A stretch of DNA of 64,000 bases, from assembly GCF_020164785.1 (NCBI RefSeq), contig NZ_JAIUGX010000003.1:1-64000 (forward strand), in the 5' to 3' direction. The DNA is from Mesorhizobium sp. ES1-1 (GTDB lineage: Bacteria; Pseudomonadota; Alphaproteobacteria; Rhizobiales; Rhizobiaceae). The notes under the pieces are model-generated. The model had not been told where the DNA came from, did not search any database, and saw only the letters and a program-made list of their open reading frames with translations. Numbering within the stretch: the first letter of the stretch is position 1; the number at the start of each line of letters is the position of its first letter. Positions 9,426-48,783 of this stretch are shown here, piece after piece. The position numbers and the translations under genes are program-made.

Positions 9426-12020
9426 ATGACAATGCTTCTGGAACGGCAGACACAGCTGGAGCAGCTGGACGGACTTCTAGCGGAGGCCGCTCGCGGGCGC
9501 GGCCGCGTCGCGGCGCTGGCCGGCGAGGCGGGCGCTGGCAAGTCGGCGCTGGTCGAGGCCTTCCTAGCCGGTGTGGCGGACGGGACGCGCATCCTGCGCA
9601 GCGCCTGCGAGGACCTGTCGATCCCCGACCCGCTCGGGCCTCTCTACGACCTCGCCCGCGAGGCGCAATGGGCGATGCCGCGGGCGATCGACGACAGGCA
9701 GGGCGGCAGGCTGCCCCTGTTCTCCGACGCGCTGGCTGTGTTCGAGACCAAGGCGCGGCCGACGCTGCTGGTGATCGAGGACCTGCATTGGGCCGATGAC
9801 GCGACGCTCGATTTCGTCCGCTTCCTCGGCAGGCGCATCGCCAACACCCACATATTGCTGCTGCTGACGGCGCGCACCGACCGCAGCGAGGGGCAGATGC
9901 GCGTGCGGCGCGCGCTGGGCGAAATCCCATCCGGCGGCATCGCCCGGATCGAGGTGCCCTTGCTCAGCGAGGCGGCGGTGCTGTCGCTGGCCAAGGCCGC
10001 CGGCCGCGACGGCGCCGCCATCTACAGGGCAACGGCCGGCAATGCCTTCTTCGTCACCGAACTGCTCAGCGCCGAAAGCGAAACGGCGCTGCCGGCCAGC
10101 GTGCGCGATGCCGTCGTGGCGCGGGCCGAACGCCTGTCGCCCGGCGCTCGCTCGATGCTCGACGCGGTCTCGGTCTTCCCGAGGCGGGCCGATGCATGGG
10201 CCTTGACCGGCCTGTGCGGCGTGGCGAGCGCAGGGCAATTGGCGGAATGCGTCTCGAACGGCTTGCTGGACGATCTGGGCGATGGCTATGCCTTCCGCCA
10301 CGAGATAGCGCGCCACGCCGTCGAGATGATGCTGACGACCAGCCACAGGCGGGCCTTCAACCAGCGCGCGCTGTCGGCGCTGCTCGACAAGGGCGGCGCT
10401 CCGATCGCGCGGCTGGTGCACCACGCCGTCGAGGCCCACAATCTCGAGGCGGTGCGCCAATTCGCGCCGATCGCCGCCCGCGAGGCCTCGCGCCTCGGCG
10501 CCCATCGCGACGCCGCCGGCTATTGCGAGGTGGCCCTGCGCCATGCCGACGCGTTGCCCAGGGACGAGCGCGCCGCCCTCTACGAGCAATACGCCTTCGA
10601 GTGCCATCTGATCGCGCGTATCGACGAGGCCATCGGCGCGCAGGAACAGGCGCGCGCGCTGCGCCAGGCGCTTGGCGATACGCTGAAGGAAGGCGATAGC
10701 CTGAGATGGCTGTCGCGCCTCGCCTATCTGCAGGGCGACCGGCAGGCCGCCGACCGGTTCGGCGCCGAGGCGGTCGCGCTTCTGGAGACCGTTCCCCCGA
10801 GCGCCGAACTGGCGATGGCCTATTCGAACCTGTCGCAACTGGCCATGCTGGCGGAAAGGCTCGACGAGACGTTGGCGCTGGGCGCCAGGGCGATCGAACT
10901 CGCCGAGCGGCTCGACCGGCCGGACGTGCTTTGCCACGCGCTCAACAATGTCGGCGCCAGCGAACAGTGGCTGGACCTCGCGAGCAGCCGGCTGCATCTT
11001 TCCCGAAGCCTCGAAATCGCCCTGGAGGGAAATTTCCAGGAGCATGCCGCGCGCGCCTTCACCAACAGCGCCTGCGGCGAGATGAACCAGCTGTGCTACG
11101 CCGAAGCGCAGACCTTCCTCGACCGCGGCATCGACTATTGCGTCGAGAACGATCTCGCGACATGGCGCGACTACATGCGGGGCGTGCGGGCCCAGTTGCT
11201 CTTGCGCCAGGGGCTCTGGAACGATGCCGCCGCAGAAGCCCTGGAGGTGATCACCAACGACCAGGCGACGCCCCTGGTGCGCTACCCCGCTCTTGTGGCG
11301 CTGGTGAAACTGCGCCTTCGGCGCGGCGATCCGGCGGCGGCGCCGCTGCTGGCGGAAATGACGCGGTTCCTCGAGAGGGGGACCGAATTGCAGAGGCTGC
11401 TGGCCTACGCCGCCATCCTCGCCGAGCAGGCCTGGATCGGCGAGGCGGAAAAGGCCGAGGCGCTGCGGCTCATCGACCTTGCGGCGTCGCTGGCGCCAGC
11501 GCCGGCAGTGTTTGCCGAACTGGCGAGCTGGCGGATGCTGCTGGTTCCCGACAGTGACCCCGGCGACACGACCGGAATGGCCGCGCCGTACCGGTTACTC
11601 TTGGCCGGCAACTGGCGGGACGCGGCTTCGGCCTGGGCCGATCTCGGCGCGCCCTATGAACGCGCCTTGGCGCTTGCCCAGGGCGACGAGCCGGCGCAGC
11701 GCGAGGCATTGGAGATTCTCGAAGCGCTTGGCGCCAGGCCGGTCGCCCAGCATGTGCGCGACATCATGCGGCGCAACGGCGTCATCCGCATCGCGAGGGG
11801 CCCGCGCCAGACCACGCGCGCCAACGGCGCCGGCCTGACGCAGCGCCAGATGGAGGTGCTGCAGCTGATCGAGCGCGGCTTCTCCAACAAGCGGATCGCC
11901 GAGCATCTCACCATCTCGCCGAAGACAGTCGATCACCACGTCTCGGCGGTGCTGGGCAAGCTCGATGCCGTCTCGCGCGGGCAGGCCACGGCGGCAGCGC
12001 GCGACTCGGGCCTGCTGTGA
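9426..12020 (+). CDS. LuxR-family regulator with N-terminal ATPase and TPR-like region
   Basis: 864 residues. Near the N-terminus is a Walker A (AGEAGAGKSALV) and a Walker B-like LLVIEDLHWADD, typical of the AAA-type STAND ATPases fused to regulators. A long helical TPR-like middle follows. A C-terminal LuxR/GerE helix-turn-helix begins LTQRQMEVLQLIERGFSNKRIAEHL and continues with SPKTVDHHVSAVL. Such proteins are ligand-controlled transcription activators (MalT-like architecture). The frame is open from 9288, but MTMLLERQTQLEQLDGLL at 9426 is the natural start. The divergent DUF4242 gene is the obvious candidate target. Confidence 0.9.
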   Translation: MTMLLERQTQLEQLDGLLAEAARGRGRVAALAGEAGAGKSALVEAFLAGVADGTRILRSACEDLSIPDPLGPLYDLAREAQWAMPRAIDDRQGGRLPLFSDALAVFETKARPTLLVIEDLHWADDATLDFVRFLGRRIANTHILLLLTARTDRSEGQMRVRRALGEIPSGGIARIEVPLLSEAAVLSLAKAAGRDGAAIYRATAGNAFFVTELLSAESETALPASVRDAVVARAERLSPGARSMLDAVSVFPRRADAWALTGLCGVASAGQLAECVSNGLLDDLGDGYAFRHEIARHAVEMMLTTSHRRAFNQRALSALLDKGGAPIARLVHHAVEAHNLEAVRQFAPIAAREASRLGAHRDAAGYCEVALRHADALPRDERAALYEQYAFECHLIARIDEAIGAQEQARALRQALGDTLKEGDSLRWLSRLAYLQGDRQAADRFGAEAVALLETVPPSAELAMAYSNLSQLAMLAERLDETLALGARAIELAERLDRPDVLCHALNNVGASEQWLDLASSRLHLSRSLEIALEGNFQEHAARAFTNSACGEMNQLCYAEAQTFLDRGIDYCVENDLATWRDYMRGVRAQLLLRQGLWNDAAAEALEVITNDQATPLVRYPALVALVKLRLRRGDPAAAPLLAEMTRFLERGTELQRLLAYAAILAEQAWIGEAEKAEALRLIDLAASLAPAPAVFAELASWRMLLVPDSDPGDTTGMAAPYRLLLAGNWRDAASAWADLGAPYERALALAQGDEPAQREALEILEALGARPVAQHVRDIMRRNGVIRIARGPRQTTRANGAGLTQRQMEVLQLIERGFSNKRIAEHLTISPKTVDHHVSAVLGKLDAVSRGQATAAARDSGLL

Positions 12021-41905: not shown

Positions 41906-43585
41906 TCATAATTGAGGCGCGGCGGCGCGGCTGGCGTCCTGTGCAAGATAGGCATGCAAGGCCGCGACCACCTGGGCGCCCTCGCCGACCGCCGCCGCGA
42001 CGCGCTTGACCGAGCCGGCGCGGACGTCGCCGATGGCGAACACGCCGTCGCGGTTCGTCTCCATCGCGCCACGCCCCGGCCCGAGCTCCAGCCCGGTGCG
42101 CACGAATCCCCGGCCGTCCAGCGCCACATCGCAATCGGCCAGCCAGTCGGTGTTCGGGTCGGCGCCGATGAACAGGAAGATATGGCGGATCGGCCGCGTC
42201 GTCGGCGCGCCGCCTGCCCGGTCGCGCCAGCGCACCGTTGCGAGATTGCTGCCCTCGCCGTCCAGGGCCTCGATTTCGGCGCCGGTCCGCACCTCGATGT
42301 TTGCCTGCGCCCGGATGCGTTCGACCAGATAGTGCGACATGCTGGCCTCGAGGCTGGGGCCGCGCGCCAGCAGCGTCACCTTGCGGACATGGCTGGCCAG
42401 GTAGACGGCCGCCTGGCCCGCCGAATTGCCGGCGCCGACGAGAGCAACCTCCTGACCGCCGCAAAGCCGCGCCTCGATCGGCGAGGCCCAATAATGCACG
42501 CAGGATCCCTCGAATTGCGCCAGATTGGCGAGATCGAGGCGGCGATAGCGCGCGCCGCTGGCGATCACCACGCTGCGCGTGCGCACCGTCTCGCCGTCGC
42601 CGACGTCGAGGGCGTAGCCGCCGCCATCGGCCGCGGCCCTCAGGAGCTTGGCCTCGTCGGGTATCACCATTTCGACGCCGAATTTCTGCGCCTGATTGTA
42701 GGCGCGCGCCATCAGCGCCATGCCCGAAATGCCGGTCGGGAAGCCGAGATAATTTTCGATGCGCGCGGAAGCGCCGGCCTGGCCGCCAAAGGCCCGGCAG
42801 TCGAGCACGATCGTCGACAGGCCCTCCGACGCCGCATAGACGGCCGCAGCCAGCCCCGCCGGTCCGGCGCCGACAATGGCGACATCGTAGATCCGGGCGC
42901 TGTCGATCGGCCGCATGAGGCCGATGCAGCGGGCAAGGTCCCGCTCGCCGGGGTTGAGCAGCAGCCTGCCGTTTGGACACAGGACGACCGGCAGGTGATG
43001 CGGGTCGACGTCGAAGCGTTCGACCAGCGTCTTGGCGCAAGGATCGCTGTCGGAATCGAGCACGCGGTGCGGCTGGCCGCTGCGCGCCAGGAAGCCTTGC
43101 AGCCGCACCACATCGCTGTTGTCGGCGGGCCCGACGATGATCGGCCCGCTGGTGGCGCTTTCGAGGAGCCCGACGCGACGCAGAATCAGCGCCCGCATGA
43201 TGCGTTCGCCCAGATTGGCCTCCTGTACCATCAGGTCGCGCAATCGTTGCGAGGCGATGACGAAGGCTTCCACCGGCTCGGCGGCAAGTGCATTGACCAG
43301 CGAGGGACGGGCCGAAAGCTGCGCCAGTTCGCCGACGAAGCTGCCCGGACCGTGCGTGACGATCGTCTCGCGCCGGCCAAGCCCGCCATCCTGGACGATA
43401 TCGACGCTCCCCGACAGAACGACGATCAGGCCGGGCGCCACATCGCCGGCCTTGACGATGTACTCACCCGCCGAATAGGCGCTGTTCTCGCCGAAGCGAC
43501 GCATGCGCTCGATATCGGCCTGCGCCAATGTGGGGAAGGCCTGGTCGCGACGGGCGCCGAAGATTGCAGTGCTGGATTGAGACAT
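41906..43585 (-). CDS. Cyclic-nucleotide-binding domain fused to thioredoxin-reductase-like flavoprotein
   Basis: 559 residues in three parts. Residues about 15-150 form a cNMP-binding-like domain (GEYIVKAGDVAPGLIVVLSGSVDI, GSFVGELAQLSARPSLVNALA). About 160-230 is a thioredoxin/glutaredoxin-like linker. From 235 on is a pyridine-nucleotide oxidoreductase with FAD site VGAGPAGLAAAVYAASEG, NADPH site LVGAGNSAGQAAVYLA and C-terminal FAIGDVRAGSVKRVAAAVGEG. The CxxC of thioredoxin reductase is replaced (CVHYWASPIEA), so it cannot be a normal TrxR. The cNMP domain suggests control by cAMP/cGMP. Confidence 0.85.
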   Translation of the reverse strand: MSQSSTAIFGARRDQAFPTLAQADIERMRRFGENSAYSAGEYIVKAGDVAPGLIVVLSGSVDIVQDGGLGRRETIVTHGPGSFVGELAQLSARPSLVNALAAEPVEAFVIASQRLRDLMVQEANLGERIMRALILRRVGLLESATSGPIIVGPADNSDVVRLQGFLARSGQPHRVLDSDSDPCAKTLVERFDVDPHHLPVVLCPNGRLLLNPGERDLARCIGLMRPIDSARIYDVAIVGAGPAGLAAAVYAASEGLSTIVLDCRAFGGQAGASARIENYLGFPTGISGMALMARAYNQAQKFGVEMVIPDEAKLLRAAADGGGYALDVGDGETVRTRSVVIASGARYRRLDLANLAQFEGSCVHYWASPIEARLCGGQEVALVGAGNSAGQAAVYLASHVRKVTLLARGPSLEASMSHYLVERIRAQANIEVRTGAEIEALDGEGSNLATVRWRDRAGGAPTTRPIRHIFLFIGADPNTDWLADCDVALDGRGFVRTGLELGPGRGAMETNRDGVFAIGDVRAGSVKRVAAAVGEGAQVVAALHAYLAQDASRAAAPQL

Positions 43586-43839
43586 GGCCGCAAGCGTAGC
43601 GAAGCGGCGGCCCGGTTTGAAGCGGTTTGTTCAGGAACTGGCCGGATGGGGAGGGCCCTTTACCTCCCCGGCTGGAGATATGGCGCAACATATCTTACCC
43701 GGCTGGCGTGGCTGTTCAGATAGCCGGCCCTCTCCAGGCCGACGCAGGGACAAATCATTTCGGACAAGACACCGGAATAGAGCTTAGTATTCATCAAGAT
43801 TCGTGCCATCACTCGTGGAAACCGCTTTCACTTTTGGAC

Positions 43840-46047
43840 ATGCCGCACAACAGACACCAATCGCACGCGAACCGGCGCAAAAGCACGAGCCCGCCGCTCA
43901 TCGATTTCGAGGCAACCGTCCGGTGCAGCCCGGCAAGCATGATGTTTGCCGACAACACAAAGCCGGATTGTCCGATCGCGTTCGTGAATCAGGCCTTCTC
44001 GGACATGACCGGCTATACGTCGGCTGAAGCGGTCGGCCGGAACTGCCGGTTTCTTCAGGGGCCCGAAACAAGCGTCGATTCAATCGCGCTGCTGCGCGAA
44101 GCACTGGCTTCGGGCCAGGTCATCAAACTGGAATTGCTGAATTACCGCAAGAACGGCGAGGCTTTCTGGAACGAGGTGCAGATCAGCCCTCAAGTCAACG
44201 AGGCGGGCGACATCTTAGGGTTCATCGGCGTCCTGACGGATGTCACCGAACGACATCGACTGAACGCCGAAACAGCGCAGATGCAGTCCCGCCTGGCTTC
44301 CATCCTGGACAACATGCCGGGCTATCTCTTCCAGCGCAGTCTCAAGGCCGACGGCGCGCTTGCCTTGACCTATTGCAGCCCCTGGCTGGGAAACATTCTC
44401 GGCATCCCGCTTGGCGATCTGGCGAACGGCACGGACCTGTTGGCCTACATGCATCCCGACGACGTCGGCGCCGCCCGCCAGAGCATCGCGCAATCGGCCG
44501 CCGATCTTAGCCCGCTTCTGCTCGAATTTCGCCTGATGACGCCGGGTGGCGGCGTCCGCTGGATACGCAACCAGTCCACACCGCGCCACACATCCTCAGG
44601 CGCCGTGGTGTGGGACGGAGTGGGCCTGGACATCACGGCGGAAAAAGCCGCCGAGGAACGCCTGTCCTATCTGGCCTTTCACGATCCGCTGACCGGCATG
44701 CCTAACAGGGAGCTTTTTGCCACCGCGCTCGCCAAGGCCGTTGCCCTGGCGGTTACAGCCGACACGCATCTGGTTCTGTTCCGGGTCGACCTCGACGCCT
44801 TCGACGAGATCAATGACGAGCTCGGCCGCGTCGTCGCGGACTCCATCCTGCGCAACGTCGCGAAGCGGATCAGCGACTTTGCCGAATCGCATGATGGGTT
44901 TGCGGCACGCATCGGCGGCGACGAGTTCGCGGTGTTTTATGCAATGTCCAGGTCGGATGGGACGGTTCAGGATGCCGCCGCAGCGCTCAGCCACATCCTG
45001 GCTGAACCGCATCCCTTGGCCGAGGGCAACTATGCGGTGGAGGCTGGCATCGGTGTCGCGGATTACCCCTTCGAGACCAGCATCGACATCGCCTCACCGA
45101 CCGCGGCGCCGGAGTTGATGAAACGTGCGGCCCTCGCCCTGCAGGCAGCAAAACGCGTCGGGCGCGGTATTCACCGCGTCTATGTGGCCGAAAGCGACAC
45201 CAGCCAGCACAATCAGATCATACTGCGCCGTTCGCTGCGCCGGGCGATCGAGGAGAACCAGTTCAAGCTCCATTATCACCCGCTGGTCGACCTGGGCTCG
45301 GGCACGATCGTCGGGGCCGAGGCGCTGGTGCGATGGAACCACCCGGAGCTTGGCCTTCAGGCACCGGATATCTTCATTCCCTTCGCCGAATCCTCGGGCC
45401 TGATCGTTCCGCTAGGCGGCTGGATCTTCAAGGAGGCAATGCAGCAGGTGAAGGCCTGGCAGGCCCGTGGCATCGCGGTGCCGAGAATTGCGATCAATGT
45501 CTCGGGCGTGCAGCTGCGCGATCCAGGGCTTCTCGCGACCGTAGAGGCGGCCCTGTCCCAAACAGGCATGGATGCGAGCCAGTTTGAACTCGAGCTGACG
45601 GAAGGCTTCATGATCGAGGCGTCGCCGTCCACTCTGAAGGTTCTGCGATCCCTCAAGATGATGGGGTTCATGCTTTCCGTGGACGATTTCGGCACAGGCC
45701 ACGCTTCGTTCCGGTATTTGAGGGATTTCCCCGTCGACAAGGTCAAGATCGATCAGACATTCGTGCGCCAGATGGTCATCGATTCCAGCGACGCATCGAT
45801 CATTCGAGCCATCATCGGTTTGGCCAAGAGCCTGGATCTTGACGTCGTGGCCGAGGGCATCGAAACCACCGTCCAGCGCGACTTCCTTCGCGACGAAGGC
45901 TGCCGGGTCGGCCAGGGATATTTCTTCAGCGTCCCGCTCACGGCCGAAGATTTCGGCTACCTCATAGAACGCGACGTCAGGCTTCCGTGGGAAACATCGG
46001 CCGCGTCGCCCGCGCGCCGGAAACAAAAAAAGGCCCAAGCACGATGA
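43840..46047 (+). CDS. LOV blue-light receptor with GGDEF and EAL domains
   Basis: 735 residues. Residues about 20-135 are a PAS domain with the LOV signature GRNCRFLQG, in which C69 is the flavin-adduct cysteine. A second PAS domain follows (about 155-265, ending GVGLDITAEKAAEERL). The GGDEF motif (359-363) and the EAL motif (E494-A-L496) are both intact, with ELTEGF, DDFGTGHASFRYL and VVAEGIET of active EAL domains. It should make and/or break cyclic di-GMP in response to blue light. ATG 43840 is the chosen start, with GGA shortly upstream; the frame is open to 43627. The stop overlaps kaiC by ATGA. Confidence 0.93.
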   Translation: MPHNRHQSHANRRKSTSPPLIDFEATVRCSPASMMFADNTKPDCPIAFVNQAFSDMTGYTSAEAVGRNCRFLQGPETSVDSIALLREALASGQVIKLELLNYRKNGEAFWNEVQISPQVNEAGDILGFIGVLTDVTERHRLNAETAQMQSRLASILDNMPGYLFQRSLKADGALALTYCSPWLGNILGIPLGDLANGTDLLAYMHPDDVGAARQSIAQSAADLSPLLLEFRLMTPGGGVRWIRNQSTPRHTSSGAVVWDGVGLDITAEKAAEERLSYLAFHDPLTGMPNRELFATALAKAVALAVTADTHLVLFRVDLDAFDEINDELGRVVADSILRNVAKRISDFAESHDGFAARIGGDEFAVFYAMSRSDGTVQDAAAALSHILAEPHPLAEGNYAVEAGIGVADYPFETSIDIASPTAAPELMKRAALALQAAKRVGRGIHRVYVAESDTSQHNQIILRRSLRRAIEENQFKLHYHPLVDLGSGTIVGAEALVRWNHPELGLQAPDIFIPFAESSGLIVPLGGWIFKEAMQQVKAWQARGIAVPRIAINVSGVQLRDPGLLATVEAALSQTGMDASQFELELTEGFMIEASPSTLKVLRSLKMMGFMLSVDDFGTGHASFRYLRDFPVDKVKIDQTFVRQMVIDSSDASIIRAIIGLAKSLDLDVVAEGIETTVQRDFLRDEGCRVGQGYFFSVPLTAEDFGYLIERDVRLPWETSAASPARRKQKKAQAR

Positions 46048-47774
46048 AGAAATCCTCGCGGTCTGCGGCCCCGCCCGGCGGGGGATCGGCGGACCCGATT
46101 CCAACGGCGAAGCCGATCGTCAAGAAGAGGACCGGCATTCCGGGATTCGACGAGATAACGGAGGGCGGCCTTCCCGCCGTCGGGGTCACCGCCATCGTCG
46201 GCGATCCTGGCTCGGGCAAGACGGTCTTTGCCCTGCAGATGCTCGTCAACGGCTTCCGGCGCGGCGAGCCCGGCATCCTGGTCGCCTTCGAAGAGCCCAC
46301 CGAACAACTCAGGTACAATCTTTCCTCATTCGACTGGGGTTTTGCCGACATAGCGAATGACGATATCTGCCTGATCGATGCGCGCCTGCCGGCCGATACG
46401 ATACAGACCGGAGGGTTCGACCTCTCCGGTCTTTTGGCCAGCCTCGAAGGGAGGATCGCGGAGTCCGGCGCAACCAATCTGGTTTTCGACGGCATCGACA
46501 TGCTGCTCGGCGCTCTCAACGATGAGGCGCTGGAGCGCCAGGAAATGGCCAGGCTTGGCGAATGGGTTCGCCGTTCCGGCGTGACGGCCATCATCACCGT
46601 CAAATCCTACGGAGCAAGCGAGCGCGACGAACAGCGCACCGCCGTCCTGCAATTCCTGTCCGACAGCGTGGTCAGGTTCCAGGGCAGCCTGACCCCTGAT
46701 GCGTTTTCGCGCACGGTGCGGATCGTGAAATACCGCGGCTCGGGGTTCGCCGCCAATCCGGTGCCGTTCGTGATCGGGGAATCGGGCATTGAAGTCATCG
46801 GTTTCGGTGGCATCCGGCTCGACTATCCGATTTTCTCCGAGCGCGTTTCAACGGGTGTCGACCGGCTCGATGCAAAGCTCGGCGGCGGTTACGTTCGCGC
46901 CAGCTGCACTCTGGTCTCGGGGGCTCCAGGCACATCCAAGACCAGCCTTGGCGCCAGCTTCCTCAACGCCGCGTGCGAGCGCGGCTCGCGGTGCCTGTTC
47001 GTCAGCTTCGATGAGAGCAGCTCGCAGATCGTGTCGAATATGAGATCGATCGGGCTGGATCTCGCCAGACACGTCGAGTCCGGCCTGCTGACGATGGAAT
47101 CCTTCATCTCGGCAAGTCGCAGCCCCGAGGAACATTTCGTCGCGATCCGCAAGATGATCGCGGGTCATCGACCGGAATTCATGGTCATCGATCCGCTGTC
47201 GGCCCTGCTGAAAATGCAACTTCCCTTCGCCGAGATGATCGGCGAGAGGATACTGGAACACGCCAAGCTTGCCGGCATTACCGTGCTGTGTACGTCGCTG
47301 CTGGACAGTGTCACGGGAACGCAGGAGCTGTCGGCAAGCCATGTCTCTACCCTGGCGGATACGTGGCTGCACGTTTCCTATGTCGCCAGCGAAGGGGAGC
47401 GCAACCGGGCGCTGACGATCATCAAGTCGCGCGGAACGGCGCATTCGAACCAGGTCAGCGAAATGGTGCTGGGCCCGGGTGGCATCGACATCGTCGACGT
47501 CTACACGGCCGAAGGCGAAGTCCTCATGGGGTCGGCACGCCATCAGAAGCAGGCAAGCGATCGCAGGAAGGAGCTTCAGATGGAGATTGCCGGCCAGCGC
47601 GCCCGCTTTGAACTCGACAAGGATGTCGCGGATCTCAAATCGGTCCTGCAGCGGGCGGTGCAGAACCTCGAATGGAAGGAGCGGGAAGTTGCGCTCCTGG
47701 GGCTGGAGGAGAAAGCCCTGCGCGAGGGCGCCAGAACCGACGCCGATGAGCGGCTTATATTGAGGCAAGACTGA
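46044..47774 (+). CDS. kaiC: KaiC-family double-RecA ATPase/autokinase
   Basis: 576 residues with CI and CII halves. CI: Walker A GDPGSGKT (53-60) and catalytic glutamates in FEEPTE. CII: P-loop GAPGTSKT (293-300), with Ser in place of the usual Gly before Lys, and FDESSSQ where cyanobacterial KaiC has YEES. The autophosphorylation pair is kept: SHVSTLADT, S435/T436, matching S431/T432 of Synechococcus KaiC. A charged C-terminal coiled-coil tail of about 80 residues follows. It is co-translated with the LOV protein and followed by kaiB. No kaiA is present, as usual outside cyanobacteria. Confidence 0.95.
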   Translation: MKKSSRSAAPPGGGSADPIPTAKPIVKKRTGIPGFDEITEGGLPAVGVTAIVGDPGSGKTVFALQMLVNGFRRGEPGILVAFEEPTEQLRYNLSSFDWGFADIANDDICLIDARLPADTIQTGGFDLSGLLASLEGRIAESGATNLVFDGIDMLLGALNDEALERQEMARLGEWVRRSGVTAIITVKSYGASERDEQRTAVLQFLSDSVVRFQGSLTPDAFSRTVRIVKYRGSGFAANPVPFVIGESGIEVIGFGGIRLDYPIFSERVSTGVDRLDAKLGGGYVRASCTLVSGAPGTSKTSLGASFLNAACERGSRCLFVSFDESSSQIVSNMRSIGLDLARHVESGLLTMESFISASRSPEEHFVAIRKMIAGHRPEFMVIDPLSALLKMQLPFAEMIGERILEHAKLAGITVLCTSLLDSVTGTQELSASHVSTLADTWLHVSYVASEGERNRALTIIKSRGTAHSNQVSEMVLGPGGIDIVDVYTAEGEVLMGSARHQKQASDRRKELQMEIAGQRARFELDKDVADLKSVLQRAVQNLEWKEREVALLGLEEKALREGARTDADERLILRQD

Positions 47775-47802
47775 TTGTCGCTGCTATACGGACAAAACGC
47801 CG

Positions 47803-48144
47803 ATGACTTCGATCACACCGACGAACGCAACCCAACCCGGCCCGAGCGGATCACGACCGCCAGGCGCGGCTCCGAAGACGATCAAGCTCAAGCTTTACGT
47901 GGCCGGCGCCACGCCGAACTCTGTTCGCGCCGAACACAATTTGCACACGGCAATCAAGAGCATTGCGGCAGAGGTCATGACCTTCGAGCTCCAAGTGATC
48001 GACGTCTTCACGCAGCAAAAGCGCGCCATCCTCGACAACGTTATCGTCACGCCGACGCTGATCATGGAAAAGGGCGACAGACGGCATACCCTTGTCGGAG
48101 ACTTGAGCGAAACGGCGCGATTGCACGCGATGCTCCTGGCTTGA
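47803..48144 (+). CDS. kaiB: KaiB-family protein
   Basis: 113 residues. After a Pro/Gly-rich leader of about 25 residues comes the thioredoxin-like KaiB domain: LKLYVAGATPNSVRAEHNL, FELQVIDVFTQQKRAILDNVIVTPTLI, GDLSE. KaiB binds phosphorylated KaiC and, in cyanobacteria, switches fold. It starts 28 bp after kaiC, and an intrinsic terminator lies 75 bp downstream, closing the operon. Confidence 0.93.
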   Translation: MTSITPTNATQPGPSGSRPPGAAPKTIKLKLYVAGATPNSVRAEHNLHTAIKSIAAEVMTFELQVIDVFTQQKRAILDNVIVTPTLIMEKGDRRHTLVGDLSETARLHAMLLA

Positions 48145-48219
48145 CCGAGAACTTGTCGCGGTAGAGACAAACTTTCACGAGATTGGCGAATCGCACTGCG
48201 GCGGGCAGCCGTCAGCAAA

Positions 48220-48248
48220 CAAAAAGCCCGGACGAACCGGGCTTTTTG
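48220..48248. terminator. Bidirectional intrinsic terminator
   Basis: CAAAAAGCCCGG, loop ACGAA, then the perfect complement, with A- and T-runs on the two sides. It closes the kaiBC operon from the left and the tRNA-Leu transcript from the right. It differs from the terminator at 41468 mainly in the loop. Confidence 0.92.
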
Positions 48249-48290
48249 TTGAGTCTCTGAGCCAATACCGCCTGGCTCGAAACGGGAAAA

Positions 48291-48375
48291 TGGTGCCCAG
48301 AAGAGGACTCGAACCTCCACTCCTTGCGGAACACGGACCTGAACCGTGCGCGTCTACCAATTCCGCCATCTGGGC
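48291..48375 (-). tRNA. tRNA-Leu(CAG)
   Basis: 85 nt with encoded CCA (48291-48293 on the complement). Acceptor GCCCAGA/TCTGGGC, anticodon stem CACGG/CCGTG around TTCAGGT, giving anticodon CAG, and a long variable arm (TTCCGCAAGGAG...) typical of class II tRNA-Leu. T loop TTCGAGT. All stems are intact. Confidence 0.97.
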
Positions 48376-48783
48376 TGGTGCGGGCTCATGTAAGCGGGCA
48401 AACGAAGTGTGTCAACGCGCTTTTTCGAAGCTGGGTGGTCTTGGCGATAGCGTGCATGGCAGCTGGAGCATGCATTCTCATGCAGCGCTGGTCGACCCCC
48501 ACTCCGTCGAGCTTCGCTCGACACCTCTCCCCCGAACGACGGGGTAGAGGAAGGGCCCCCTTCCTTTCCCTCTGGAGGGGGAAAGGTGGCGCTGCGAAGC
48601 AGCGACGGATTGGTGGAACCACGTGGCGATCAAGCCTCCCGCCGATCAGTCACGTAACTTCGCGGAATACCTGTACGCGGCCTAGCCATGAATCGAGAAA
48701 ACATGTCCTGCCCGCCAATGACGGGACGGCAACGAACGAAATCAGAGGGCGACCAATGGCCGTCATCATGGGCAATGCTACCC
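48376..48783. repeat. Intergenic region with palindromic repeat remnants
   Basis: No gene is supported between tRNA-Leu and gpmA. There is a perfect 7-bp hairpin GTCGAGC/GCTCGAC (48506-48522). GC-rich sequences around 48523-48610 (CCTCTCCCCCGAACGACGGGG, CCCTCTGGAGGGGG, GGCGCTGCGAAGCAGC) belong to the same class of intergenic element as elsewhere in the window. The remainder (48620-48780) holds nothing I recognise. Confidence 0.55.

What the first reader, a model, noticed from the sequence alone, without database searches (positions are those of the whole stretch)
43840..48144. LOV-GGDEF-EAL photoreceptor co-translated with kaiC and kaiB
Sequence: a LOV domain with intact adduct cysteine (GRNCRFLQG, C69), both GGDEF and EAL motifs intact, overlaps kaiC by ATGA and is followed by kaiB and a terminator. 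This joins blue light, cyclic di-GMP and a KaiBC timer in one operon. Known: KaiC/KaiB occur outside cyanobacteria, without KaiA. Inference: light-set c-di-GMP could act on, or be timed by, KaiC phosphorylation. The combination is not one I know as described.
Basis: partly seen in the sequence, partly recalled or inferred. Interest (0 to 1): 0.85.

Follow-up and report, generated by a model that had tools for sequence, protein, structure and literature searches.

The report
Blue-light c-di-GMP enzyme with KaiBC
A bacterium carries a compact three-gene insert that puts a predicted blue-light-sensing enzyme of the second messenger c-di-GMP next to the clock proteins KaiC and KaiB, a variant of a known clock cluster in which this enzyme takes the place usually held by a histidine kinase.

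Summary
In detail: 43840-46047 encodes LOV-PAS-GGDEF-EAL; kaiC (46044-47774) overlaps it by ATGA; kaiB (47803-48144) follows. Corrections: the LOV domain keeps its adduct cysteine (C69) but has Leu132 instead of the signalling glutamine; the terminator belongs to the tRNA-Leu side and is found in relatives without the operon; the genes fill a ~4.56 kb insert. No orthologue of the first gene was found in 145 other genomes of the genus. The pairing is not private to this strain: five clusters in three genomes of two further families of the order pair kaiC-kaiB with an EAL protein; two of these also have LOV, in another gene order. The window's KaiC lies in a divergent 12-member clade (100/100 support) with an EAL gene in the cluster in 8 of 12 loci, against 3 of 106 outside, where a histidine kinase is usual. 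GGDEF/EAL neighbours of kaiCB were reported in 2011; I met no report of the LOV version. Best reading: a light- and KaiBC-gated c-di-GMP phosphodiesterase module. Coupling is inferred, not shown. New variant of a known kind.

The parts
43655..48214 (.). Inserted segment (~4.56 kb) holding the whole three-gene unit, between a cNMP-binding/thioredoxin-reductase-like gene and the terminator + tRNA-Leu(CAG)
   Evidence: Alignment to the empty site of G010, where the two flanks lie 6 bp apart, and synteny; GC 0.6145 against 0.6614 in 14 kb of flanks, weak evidence
43840..46047 (+). LOV-PAS-GGDEF-EAL protein, 735 aa
   Evidence: Pfam; motif positions; PDB sequence matches
43912..44268 (+). LOV domain: C69 present, glutamine position reads Leu132
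   Evidence: phmmer alignment to 6rhg, 120.5 bits
44674..45165 (+). GGDEF domain: GGDEF, DLD and IND kept; H to R and G to A in the NDxxGHxxGD motif; no RxxD inhibitory site (E349 at the R)
   Evidence: meaning of the residues recalled
45229..45936 (+). EAL domain, predicted phosphodiesterase: E494, N553, E588, D615, D616, K636, E672, Q692 kept; loop 6 reads DFGTGHASF instead of DFGTGYSSL
   Evidence: meaning of the residues recalled
46044..47774 (+). kaiC, 576 aa, two ATPase domains, S435-T436 at the phosphorylation sites, FDE instead of FEE in CII, long C-terminal tail
47803..48144 (+). kaiB, 113 aa
48221..48247 (.). Terminator hairpin on the tRNA-Leu side; older than the insert
   Evidence: fold z -3.84 for 48180-48270; present in G010 without the operon; this flank aligns in 6 of 10 relatives

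Best explanation
A light- and timer-gated c-di-GMP module. Shown: one compact insert encodes a LOV-PAS-GGDEF-EAL enzyme whose gene overlaps kaiC, followed by kaiB; the enzyme stands in the cluster where related kaiC-kaiB clusters carry a PAS histidine kinase (in L192 and L193, of the same KaiC clade, a kinase gene stands in the very same slot before kaiC); and an EAL domain with its catalytic letters is what the c-di-GMP partners of this clade share. Inferred: KaiC and KaiB form a KaiA-less, hourglass-type phosphorylation timer as in Rhodobacter sphaeroides; KaiC (or KaiC-KaiB) acts on the enzyme through its N-terminal or PAS region and shifts its balance towards c-di-GMP breakdown; blue light on the LOV domain sets or gates the same enzyme. 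The likely output is a time-of-day dependent change in c-di-GMP, hence in surface growth or motility.
For: ATGA overlap in the window. In L032, of another family, kaiC-kaiB and kaiB-LOV-GGDEF-EAL can each be read with an ATGA overlap although the gene order differs; L078 has enzyme > kaiC > kaiB in the window's order with an 11-nt overlap. EAL gene in the kai cluster in 8 of 12 loci of the window's KaiC clade against 3 of 106 other loci (Fisher p 1e-7, not corrected for kinship); clade support 100/100. Outside the clade 74 of 106 have a histidine kinase and no c-di-GMP enzyme in the cluster. EAL catalytic letters are kept in all eight, while GGDEF is absent in three and degenerate in three. 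KaiC keeps a phosphorylatable pair (S435-T436), aligned to the pair that is SS in 8dba and EE in the S413E/S414E mutant 8fwi (PMC10076222 passages). Changed c-di-GMP levels shift the clock of S. elongatus (PMC13001216 passages).
Against: No experiment; contact between KaiC and the enzyme untested. In S. elongatus c-di-GMP did not act directly or consistently on Kai proteins in vitro (PMC13001216). LOV lacks the glutamine; loop 6 of EAL and part of the GGDEF motif deviate; KaiC has D for E in the CII pair and S for G in the CII P-loop. Of the eight EAL-bearing loci of the clade only three have a LOV cysteine, and the other two of these have another gene order; LOV occurs in 3 of 118 loci. On the KaiC tree the c-di-GMP partner is not one clean group: the label needs 4 changes, at least 2 forced by well-supported branches. 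The unit is rare: found whole in 1 of 146 genomes of the genus.
Confidence: 0.42

Rival explanations
1. Reverse direction: the LOV-GGDEF-EAL protein is the input arm. Light changes local c-di-GMP or GTP, or the protein itself binds KaiC, and so resets the timer; the output lies elsewhere.
For: The enzyme is first in the operon and carries the only obvious environmental sensor; enzymes that change c-di-GMP shift S. elongatus phase and period (PMC13001216).
Against: c-di-GMP had no consistent direct effect on the S. elongatus Kai proteins in vitro; five of the eight c-di-GMP partners of the clade lack a LOV cysteine, so light input is not the common feature, while EAL is.
Confidence: 0.2
2. Shared cargo only: the genes travel and are expressed together because both serve a stress or surface lifestyle, but the proteins do not act on each other.
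For: The unit is an insert at a variable site (6 bp to 9.1 kb between the same flanks in the six relatives where both were found) and was found whole in 1 of 146 genomes of the genus.
Against: The pairing recurs in other families in another order with tight overlaps and is concentrated in one KaiC clade.
Confidence: 0.25
3. A flavin redox or oxygen sensor, not a photoreceptor: the LOV domain without glutamine signals poorly and the module reads metabolism.
For: Leu, Ala and Met stand at the glutamine position in the window, L032 and L098.
Against: Glutamine-less LOV receptors retain light responses, and one natural LOV-GGDEF of this kind was shown to respond (PMC9098866 passages); the adduct cysteine is kept in all three.
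Confidence: 0.13

Closest known systems
kaiC-kaiB-histidine kinase clusters (Rhodobacter sphaeroides KaiBC, PMC10076222; Bradyrhizobium BRADO1478-1481, PMC3899966)
   Same: KaiC with two ATPase domains, a phosphorylatable pair and a long C-terminal tail; KaiB next to it; no KaiA; PAS-type sensor protein in the cluster
   Different: The partner is a c-di-GMP enzyme with LOV instead of a histidine kinase, placed before kaiC; KaiC belongs to a separate clade with ST, FDE and GTSK/GTAK letters
kaiC-kaiB clusters with a GGDEF/EAL protein (De Luca et al. 2011, PMC3164672)
   Same: A GGDEF/EAL protein adjoins kaiC/kaiB (passages and legends)
   Different: The text names PAS/PAC-GGDEF-EAL, with 0 occurrences of 'LOV'; it places the gene downstream of kaiC or kaiB, whereas here it is upstream. 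Figures and supplements were not seen
SL2 of Synechococcus elongatus, a LOV-GGDEF-EAL protein
   Same: Domain set; blue light drives c-di-GMP breakdown in vitro (PMC8846402, PMC13001216 passages)
   Different: No shared operon with kai genes is mentioned in the passages read; its LOV is called canonical there, whereas the window's lacks the glutamine and is followed by a further PAS
Glutamine-less LOV receptors (LOV-deltaQ), PMC9098866
   Same: Glutamine replaced, predominantly by Leu or Ile in that set; one member is a LOV-GGDEF
   Different: No link to Kai proteins in the passages read

Membership tests
KaiC | two KaiC ATPase domains with P-loops | tested here: met
   PF06745 two stretches; GDPGSGKT and GAPGTSKT (the second has S for the usual last G)
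KaiC | S/T pair at the CII phosphorylation sites | tested here: met
   S435-T436 aligned to SS of 8dba and EE of 8fwi
KaiC | catalytic glutamate pairs in CI and CII | tested here: inconclusive
   CI FEE met; CII FDE; 10 of 12 members of its clade have D at this place
KaiC | autophosphorylation / ATPase timing | not testable with these tools
   needs biochemistry
KaiB | KaiB domain | tested here: met
   PF07689 46.1 bits, cut-off 27; below the NCBIfam equivalog cut-off (TIGR02654 48.5 of 145.3 bits)
cyanobacterial KaiABC clock | KaiA present | tested here: not met
   0 matches to PF07688 in the genome; control rings in S. elongatus
LOV photoreceptor | adduct cysteine in GxNCRFLQ | tested here: met
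   C69
LOV photoreceptor | active-site glutamine | tested here: not met
   Leu132; reported as generally dispensable (PMC9098866)
LOV photoreceptor | flavin binding and photocycle | not testable with these tools
   needs spectroscopy
EAL phosphodiesterase | metal- and substrate-binding residues | tested here: met
   E494, N553, E588, D615, D616, K636, E672, Q692 (roles recalled); loop 6 deviates
GGDEF diguanylate cyclase | GGDEF motif and substrate residues | tested here: met
   GGDEF 359-363, DLD, IND (roles recalled); H to R and G to A nearby, so activity is open
kaiC-kaiB-histidine kinase cluster | histidine kinase in the cluster | tested here: not met
   none in the window's chain of genes; partner is LOV-PAS-GGDEF-EAL

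The most novel reading that the evidence does not exclude
In a separate branch of KaiC the usual phosphorelay kinase partner has given way, once or more, to a c-di-GMP phosphodiesterase, giving a transferable clock-to-second-messenger module; on two occasions (the window; L032/L098) a LOV domain was added, so that light, timer and c-di-GMP meet in one coupled operon.
Probability: 0.33. Interest if true: 0.8.

Novelty: new variant of a known kind. Interest (0 to 1): 0.56.

Why it matters
Whether KaiBC keeps time outside cyanobacteria, and how such a timer would be set and read out, is open. A three-gene unit with a predicted blue-light sensor and a measurable chemical output (c-di-GMP) would make both ends of the question testable in a reconstituted mixture and in a laboratory E. 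coli host. It would also link the report that c-di-GMP shifts the S. elongatus clock (PMC13001216) to a genetic unit.

Tried and rejected
Rejected: chance neighbourhood (recurrence with overlaps in other families). Rejected: the terminator as a part specific to the operon. Not supported: a simple transposon or tRNA-duplication island in its present form; no exact repeat of 9 bases or more between 43560-43960 and 48150-48400, and the ORF list shows little room in the insert beyond the three genes. Considered: one origin for all LOV-GGDEF-EAL/kai units. The window LOV is 33-37% identical to those of L032 and L098, which are 61% identical to each other, and the KaiC trees place them apart, but with support of only 81-88, so two recruitments are likely, not shown. 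The quick tree puts the six c-di-GMP clusters of the order together (support 82); the careful tree does not. The long branches of L078 and L197 make the inner order of the clade unsure. Fisher tests treat loci as independent, and the loci were gathered by similarity to the window's KaiC, so p values overstate; a first, cruder count (7 of 12 against 3 of 112, entered by hand) is superseded.

Dropped before the counts: the genus's own shorter kaiB-kaiC loci (L033-L037), L038 and L039, and the three plasmid clusters L201-L203 (annotated with a histidine kinase in L202 and L203 and a response regulator in L201). In 27 of 118 loci neither a kinase nor a c-di-GMP enzyme passed my cut-offs; two are in the clade (L103, L105). 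For L103 Pfam shows a PAS-HisKA protein running off the contig after kaiB; others may be contig ends or kinases that my seed missed. L160 has GGDEF-EAL genes within 5 kb that fell outside the 350-base chain rule. The intervals rest on ends of tblastn matches and are too long for G001 (its match starts near residue 147); one search replaces them.

Literature: ten searches. I saw passages of PMC3164672, PMC13001216, PMC6848086, PMC3899966, PMC11832031, PMC5520375, PMC9098866, PMC8846402, PMC10076222 and PMC6627678, none in full. That I met no LOV protein encoded with kaiC-kaiB rests on (2 of 2 papers listed; 15 of 21 listed; 10 of 25 listed; 6 of 6 listed) in this open-access library only; several of those papers, such as PMC6378743, I know from the listing alone. 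The Legionella kai operon paper is not held.

Full report
WHAT IS THERE. The window holds three co-directional genes: a 735-aa LOV-PAS-GGDEF-EAL protein (43840-46047), kaiC (46044-47774, overlapping by ATGA) and kaiB (47803-48144). Pfam scores are over cut-offs (EAL 235.7 bits, GGDEF 96, PAS_9 82.6, PAS_3 80.8, KaiC 287.3, KaiB 46.1). By PDB sequence search the LOV domain resembles a bacterial LOV (6rhg, 120.5 bits) and the GGDEF-EAL part matches 5m3c and 4rnh; the best KaiC matches are 8dba and 8fwi, which are R. sphaeroides KaiC (PMC10076222, passages).

The LOV domain keeps the adduct cysteine C69, but the glutamine that relays the photochemical signal is Leu132 (fvgvQtdvt / figvLtdvt). In the two other LOV proteins of kai clusters the position reads Ala (L032) and Met (L098). 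Dietler et al. report around 350 putative glutamine-less LOV receptors, predominantly with leucine or isoleucine there, and a blue-light response for one proteobacterial LOV-GGDEF (PMC9098866, passages). A PAS domain lies between LOV and GGDEF. The terminator (48221-48247) is present at the empty site of G010.

THE INSERT. In G010 the same neighbours (PLP-dependent enzyme, TPR protein, zf-UBP protein, reductase-like gene, tRNA-Leu, histidine-phosphatase-family gene, dapB; Pfam names) are in the same order. There the two flanks of the window's insert lie 6 bp apart, which puts the insert at 43655-48214. Of ten relatives of the genus examined, three are empty or nearly so (G010 6 bp, G001 33 bp, G011 72 bp), three have other material (G003 0.80 kb, G012 0.87 kb, G009 9.1 kb), and in four the left flank was not found in the stretch fetched (G008, G004, G005, G002; in G008 the reductase gene lies about 15.6 kb from tRNA-Leu). 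GC of the insert is 0.6145 against 0.6614 in 14 kb of flanks; 11 of 252 other windows of this size in the 64 kb are as low, so composition is weak evidence. Among 146 genomes of the genus (own included) the best other match to the LOV protein is 37% identical and starts at residue 127; one match reaches further (G045, residues 46-711, 33%), so I found no orthologue. Among 60 other genomes of the genus searched with KaiC, five carry a shorter kaiB-kaiC type at about 32% identity (G017, G033, G035, G052, G058) and one, G018, has a fragment 64-74% identical to KaiC residues 493-576, about 2.3 kb from a phage-integrase-family ORF. So this kind of KaiC has probably entered the genus at least twice.

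RECURRENCE. In the order, 27 of 397 genomes have KaiC at E <= 1e-76; weaker matches were not followed. I read the neighbourhoods of 118 loci (27 stretches from the order, 80 loci, 9 from class and phylum searches, L032 and the window). A LOV cysteine motif was found in ORFs of 3 of 118: window, L032 (G077) and L098 (G274). L032 runs kaiC > kaiB > PAS-LOV-GGDEF(GGNEF)-EAL and can be read with ATGA at both junctions. L078 (second cluster of G274) runs dCache-PAS-GGDEF-EAL > kaiC > kaiB with 11- and 4-nt overlaps. L076 and L077 (two clusters of G243) run EAL > kaiC > kaiB, with a GAF-GGDEF gene after kaiB in L076 and divergent from the EAL gene in L077. L197, from another part of the phylum, runs PAS-GGDEF-EAL > kaiC > kaiB > GGDEF. 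L104 (Rhodoferax) has kaiC > kaiB > hybrid kinase > receiver-EAL. In L192 and L193 a PAS kinase stands before kaiC, in the slot of the window's enzyme.

A KaiC CLADE. The window's KaiC groups with 11 others (L032, L076, L077, L078, L098, L103, L104, L105, L192, L193, L197), with 100/100 support in a careful tree of 25 rows, 98 in a quick tree of 53 and 99 in a fast tree of 124. Letters (53 rows): phosphorylation pair ST in 11 of 12 (SA in L032), where most of the others read SS; FD for FE in CII in 10 of 12; A or S for the last G of the CII P-loop in 12 of 12 (also in L136, L140 and L160 outside). With a rule of same strand and gaps up to 350 bp, an EAL protein is in the cluster in 8 of 12 against 3 of 106 outside (Fisher p 1.0e-7); any GGDEF or EAL protein in 8 of 12 against 7 of 106 (p 3.4e-6). 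Outside, 74 of 106 have a histidine kinase and no c-di-GMP enzyme; inside, L192 and L193. These p values ignore kinship, and the trait is not a single clean group on the tree (4 changes, at least 2 forced). All eight EAL domains keep the catalytic letters (their meaning recalled), whereas GGDEF is lacking in L076, L077 and L104 and reads GGNEF in L032 and L098 and GDDEF in L078. Breakdown of c-di-GMP is therefore the better guess for the common activity.

HOW IT MOST LIKELY WORKS. R. sphaeroides KaiBC is described as an hourglass timer without KaiA, whose KaiC tail forms a coiled-coil dodecamer (PMC10076222, passages). The window's KaiC aligns along the tail to residue 564; a coiled coil was not tested. 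No KaiA was found in the genome. By position the LOV enzyme stands where PAS kinases stand elsewhere. I infer that KaiC state gates the phosphodiesterase and that blue light does so through LOV. The reverse, and mere co-transport, are not excluded. The genome has 21 GGDEF and 15 EAL matches, so any effect would be on a crowded network or local.

WHAT IS KNOWN AND NEW. kaiC-kaiB with GGDEF/EAL neighbours was stated in 2011 (PMC3164672). A LOV-GGDEF-EAL phosphodiesterase is known (SL2). c-di-GMP affects the S. elongatus period and phase, without a consistent direct effect on Kai proteins in vitro (PMC13001216). A Rhizobium LOV kinase affects exopolysaccharide and nodulation (as cited in PMC6627678). 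I met no description of a LOV protein encoded with kaiC-kaiB (listings partly capped). Its family holds a genus with 1.5-1.6 Mb genomes, which would fit a wide Rhizobiaceae with Bartonella, and the genus might be Mesorhizobium; this is recall and guess, not tested.

Noticed in passing
window 41906-43585 (-): Cyclic-nucleotide-binding domain fused to a thioredoxin-reductase-like FAD oxidoreductase, next to the insert; matches at E <= 1e-150 in 16 of 41 genomes, own included, all in the genus.
   Followed up: partly
window 43655-48214: The interval between the reductase gene and tRNA-Leu(CAG) is a variable insertion site: 6, 33 and 72 bp in three relatives, 0.80, 0.87 and 9.1 kb in three others.
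   Followed up: partly
L031 7795-8045: G018 holds a C-terminal KaiC remnant 64-74% identical to the window's KaiC, about 2.3 kb from a phage-integrase-family ORF at 10303-11733.
   Followed up: partly
L038 (G000 contig 8, 59061-60515): A second, divergent KaiC-like protein in the same genome with no KaiB hit nearby and a PAS histidine kinase 1.1 kb on.
   Followed up: partly
L248 (G000 contig 18, 289133-289480, -): One other LOV-like domain in the genome, 42% identical to the window's.
   Followed up: no
L076 and L077: G243 has two paralogous kai clusters, each with an EAL protein whose N-terminal half looks hydrophobic (by eye) and a separate GAF-GGDEF gene, and with FEQ for FEE in KaiC CI.
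   Followed up: partly
window 48423-48655: The stretch between tRNA-Leu and the histidine-phosphatase-family gene matches many places in genomes of this genus, up to about 230 bp each: a dispersed repeat family.
   Followed up: no
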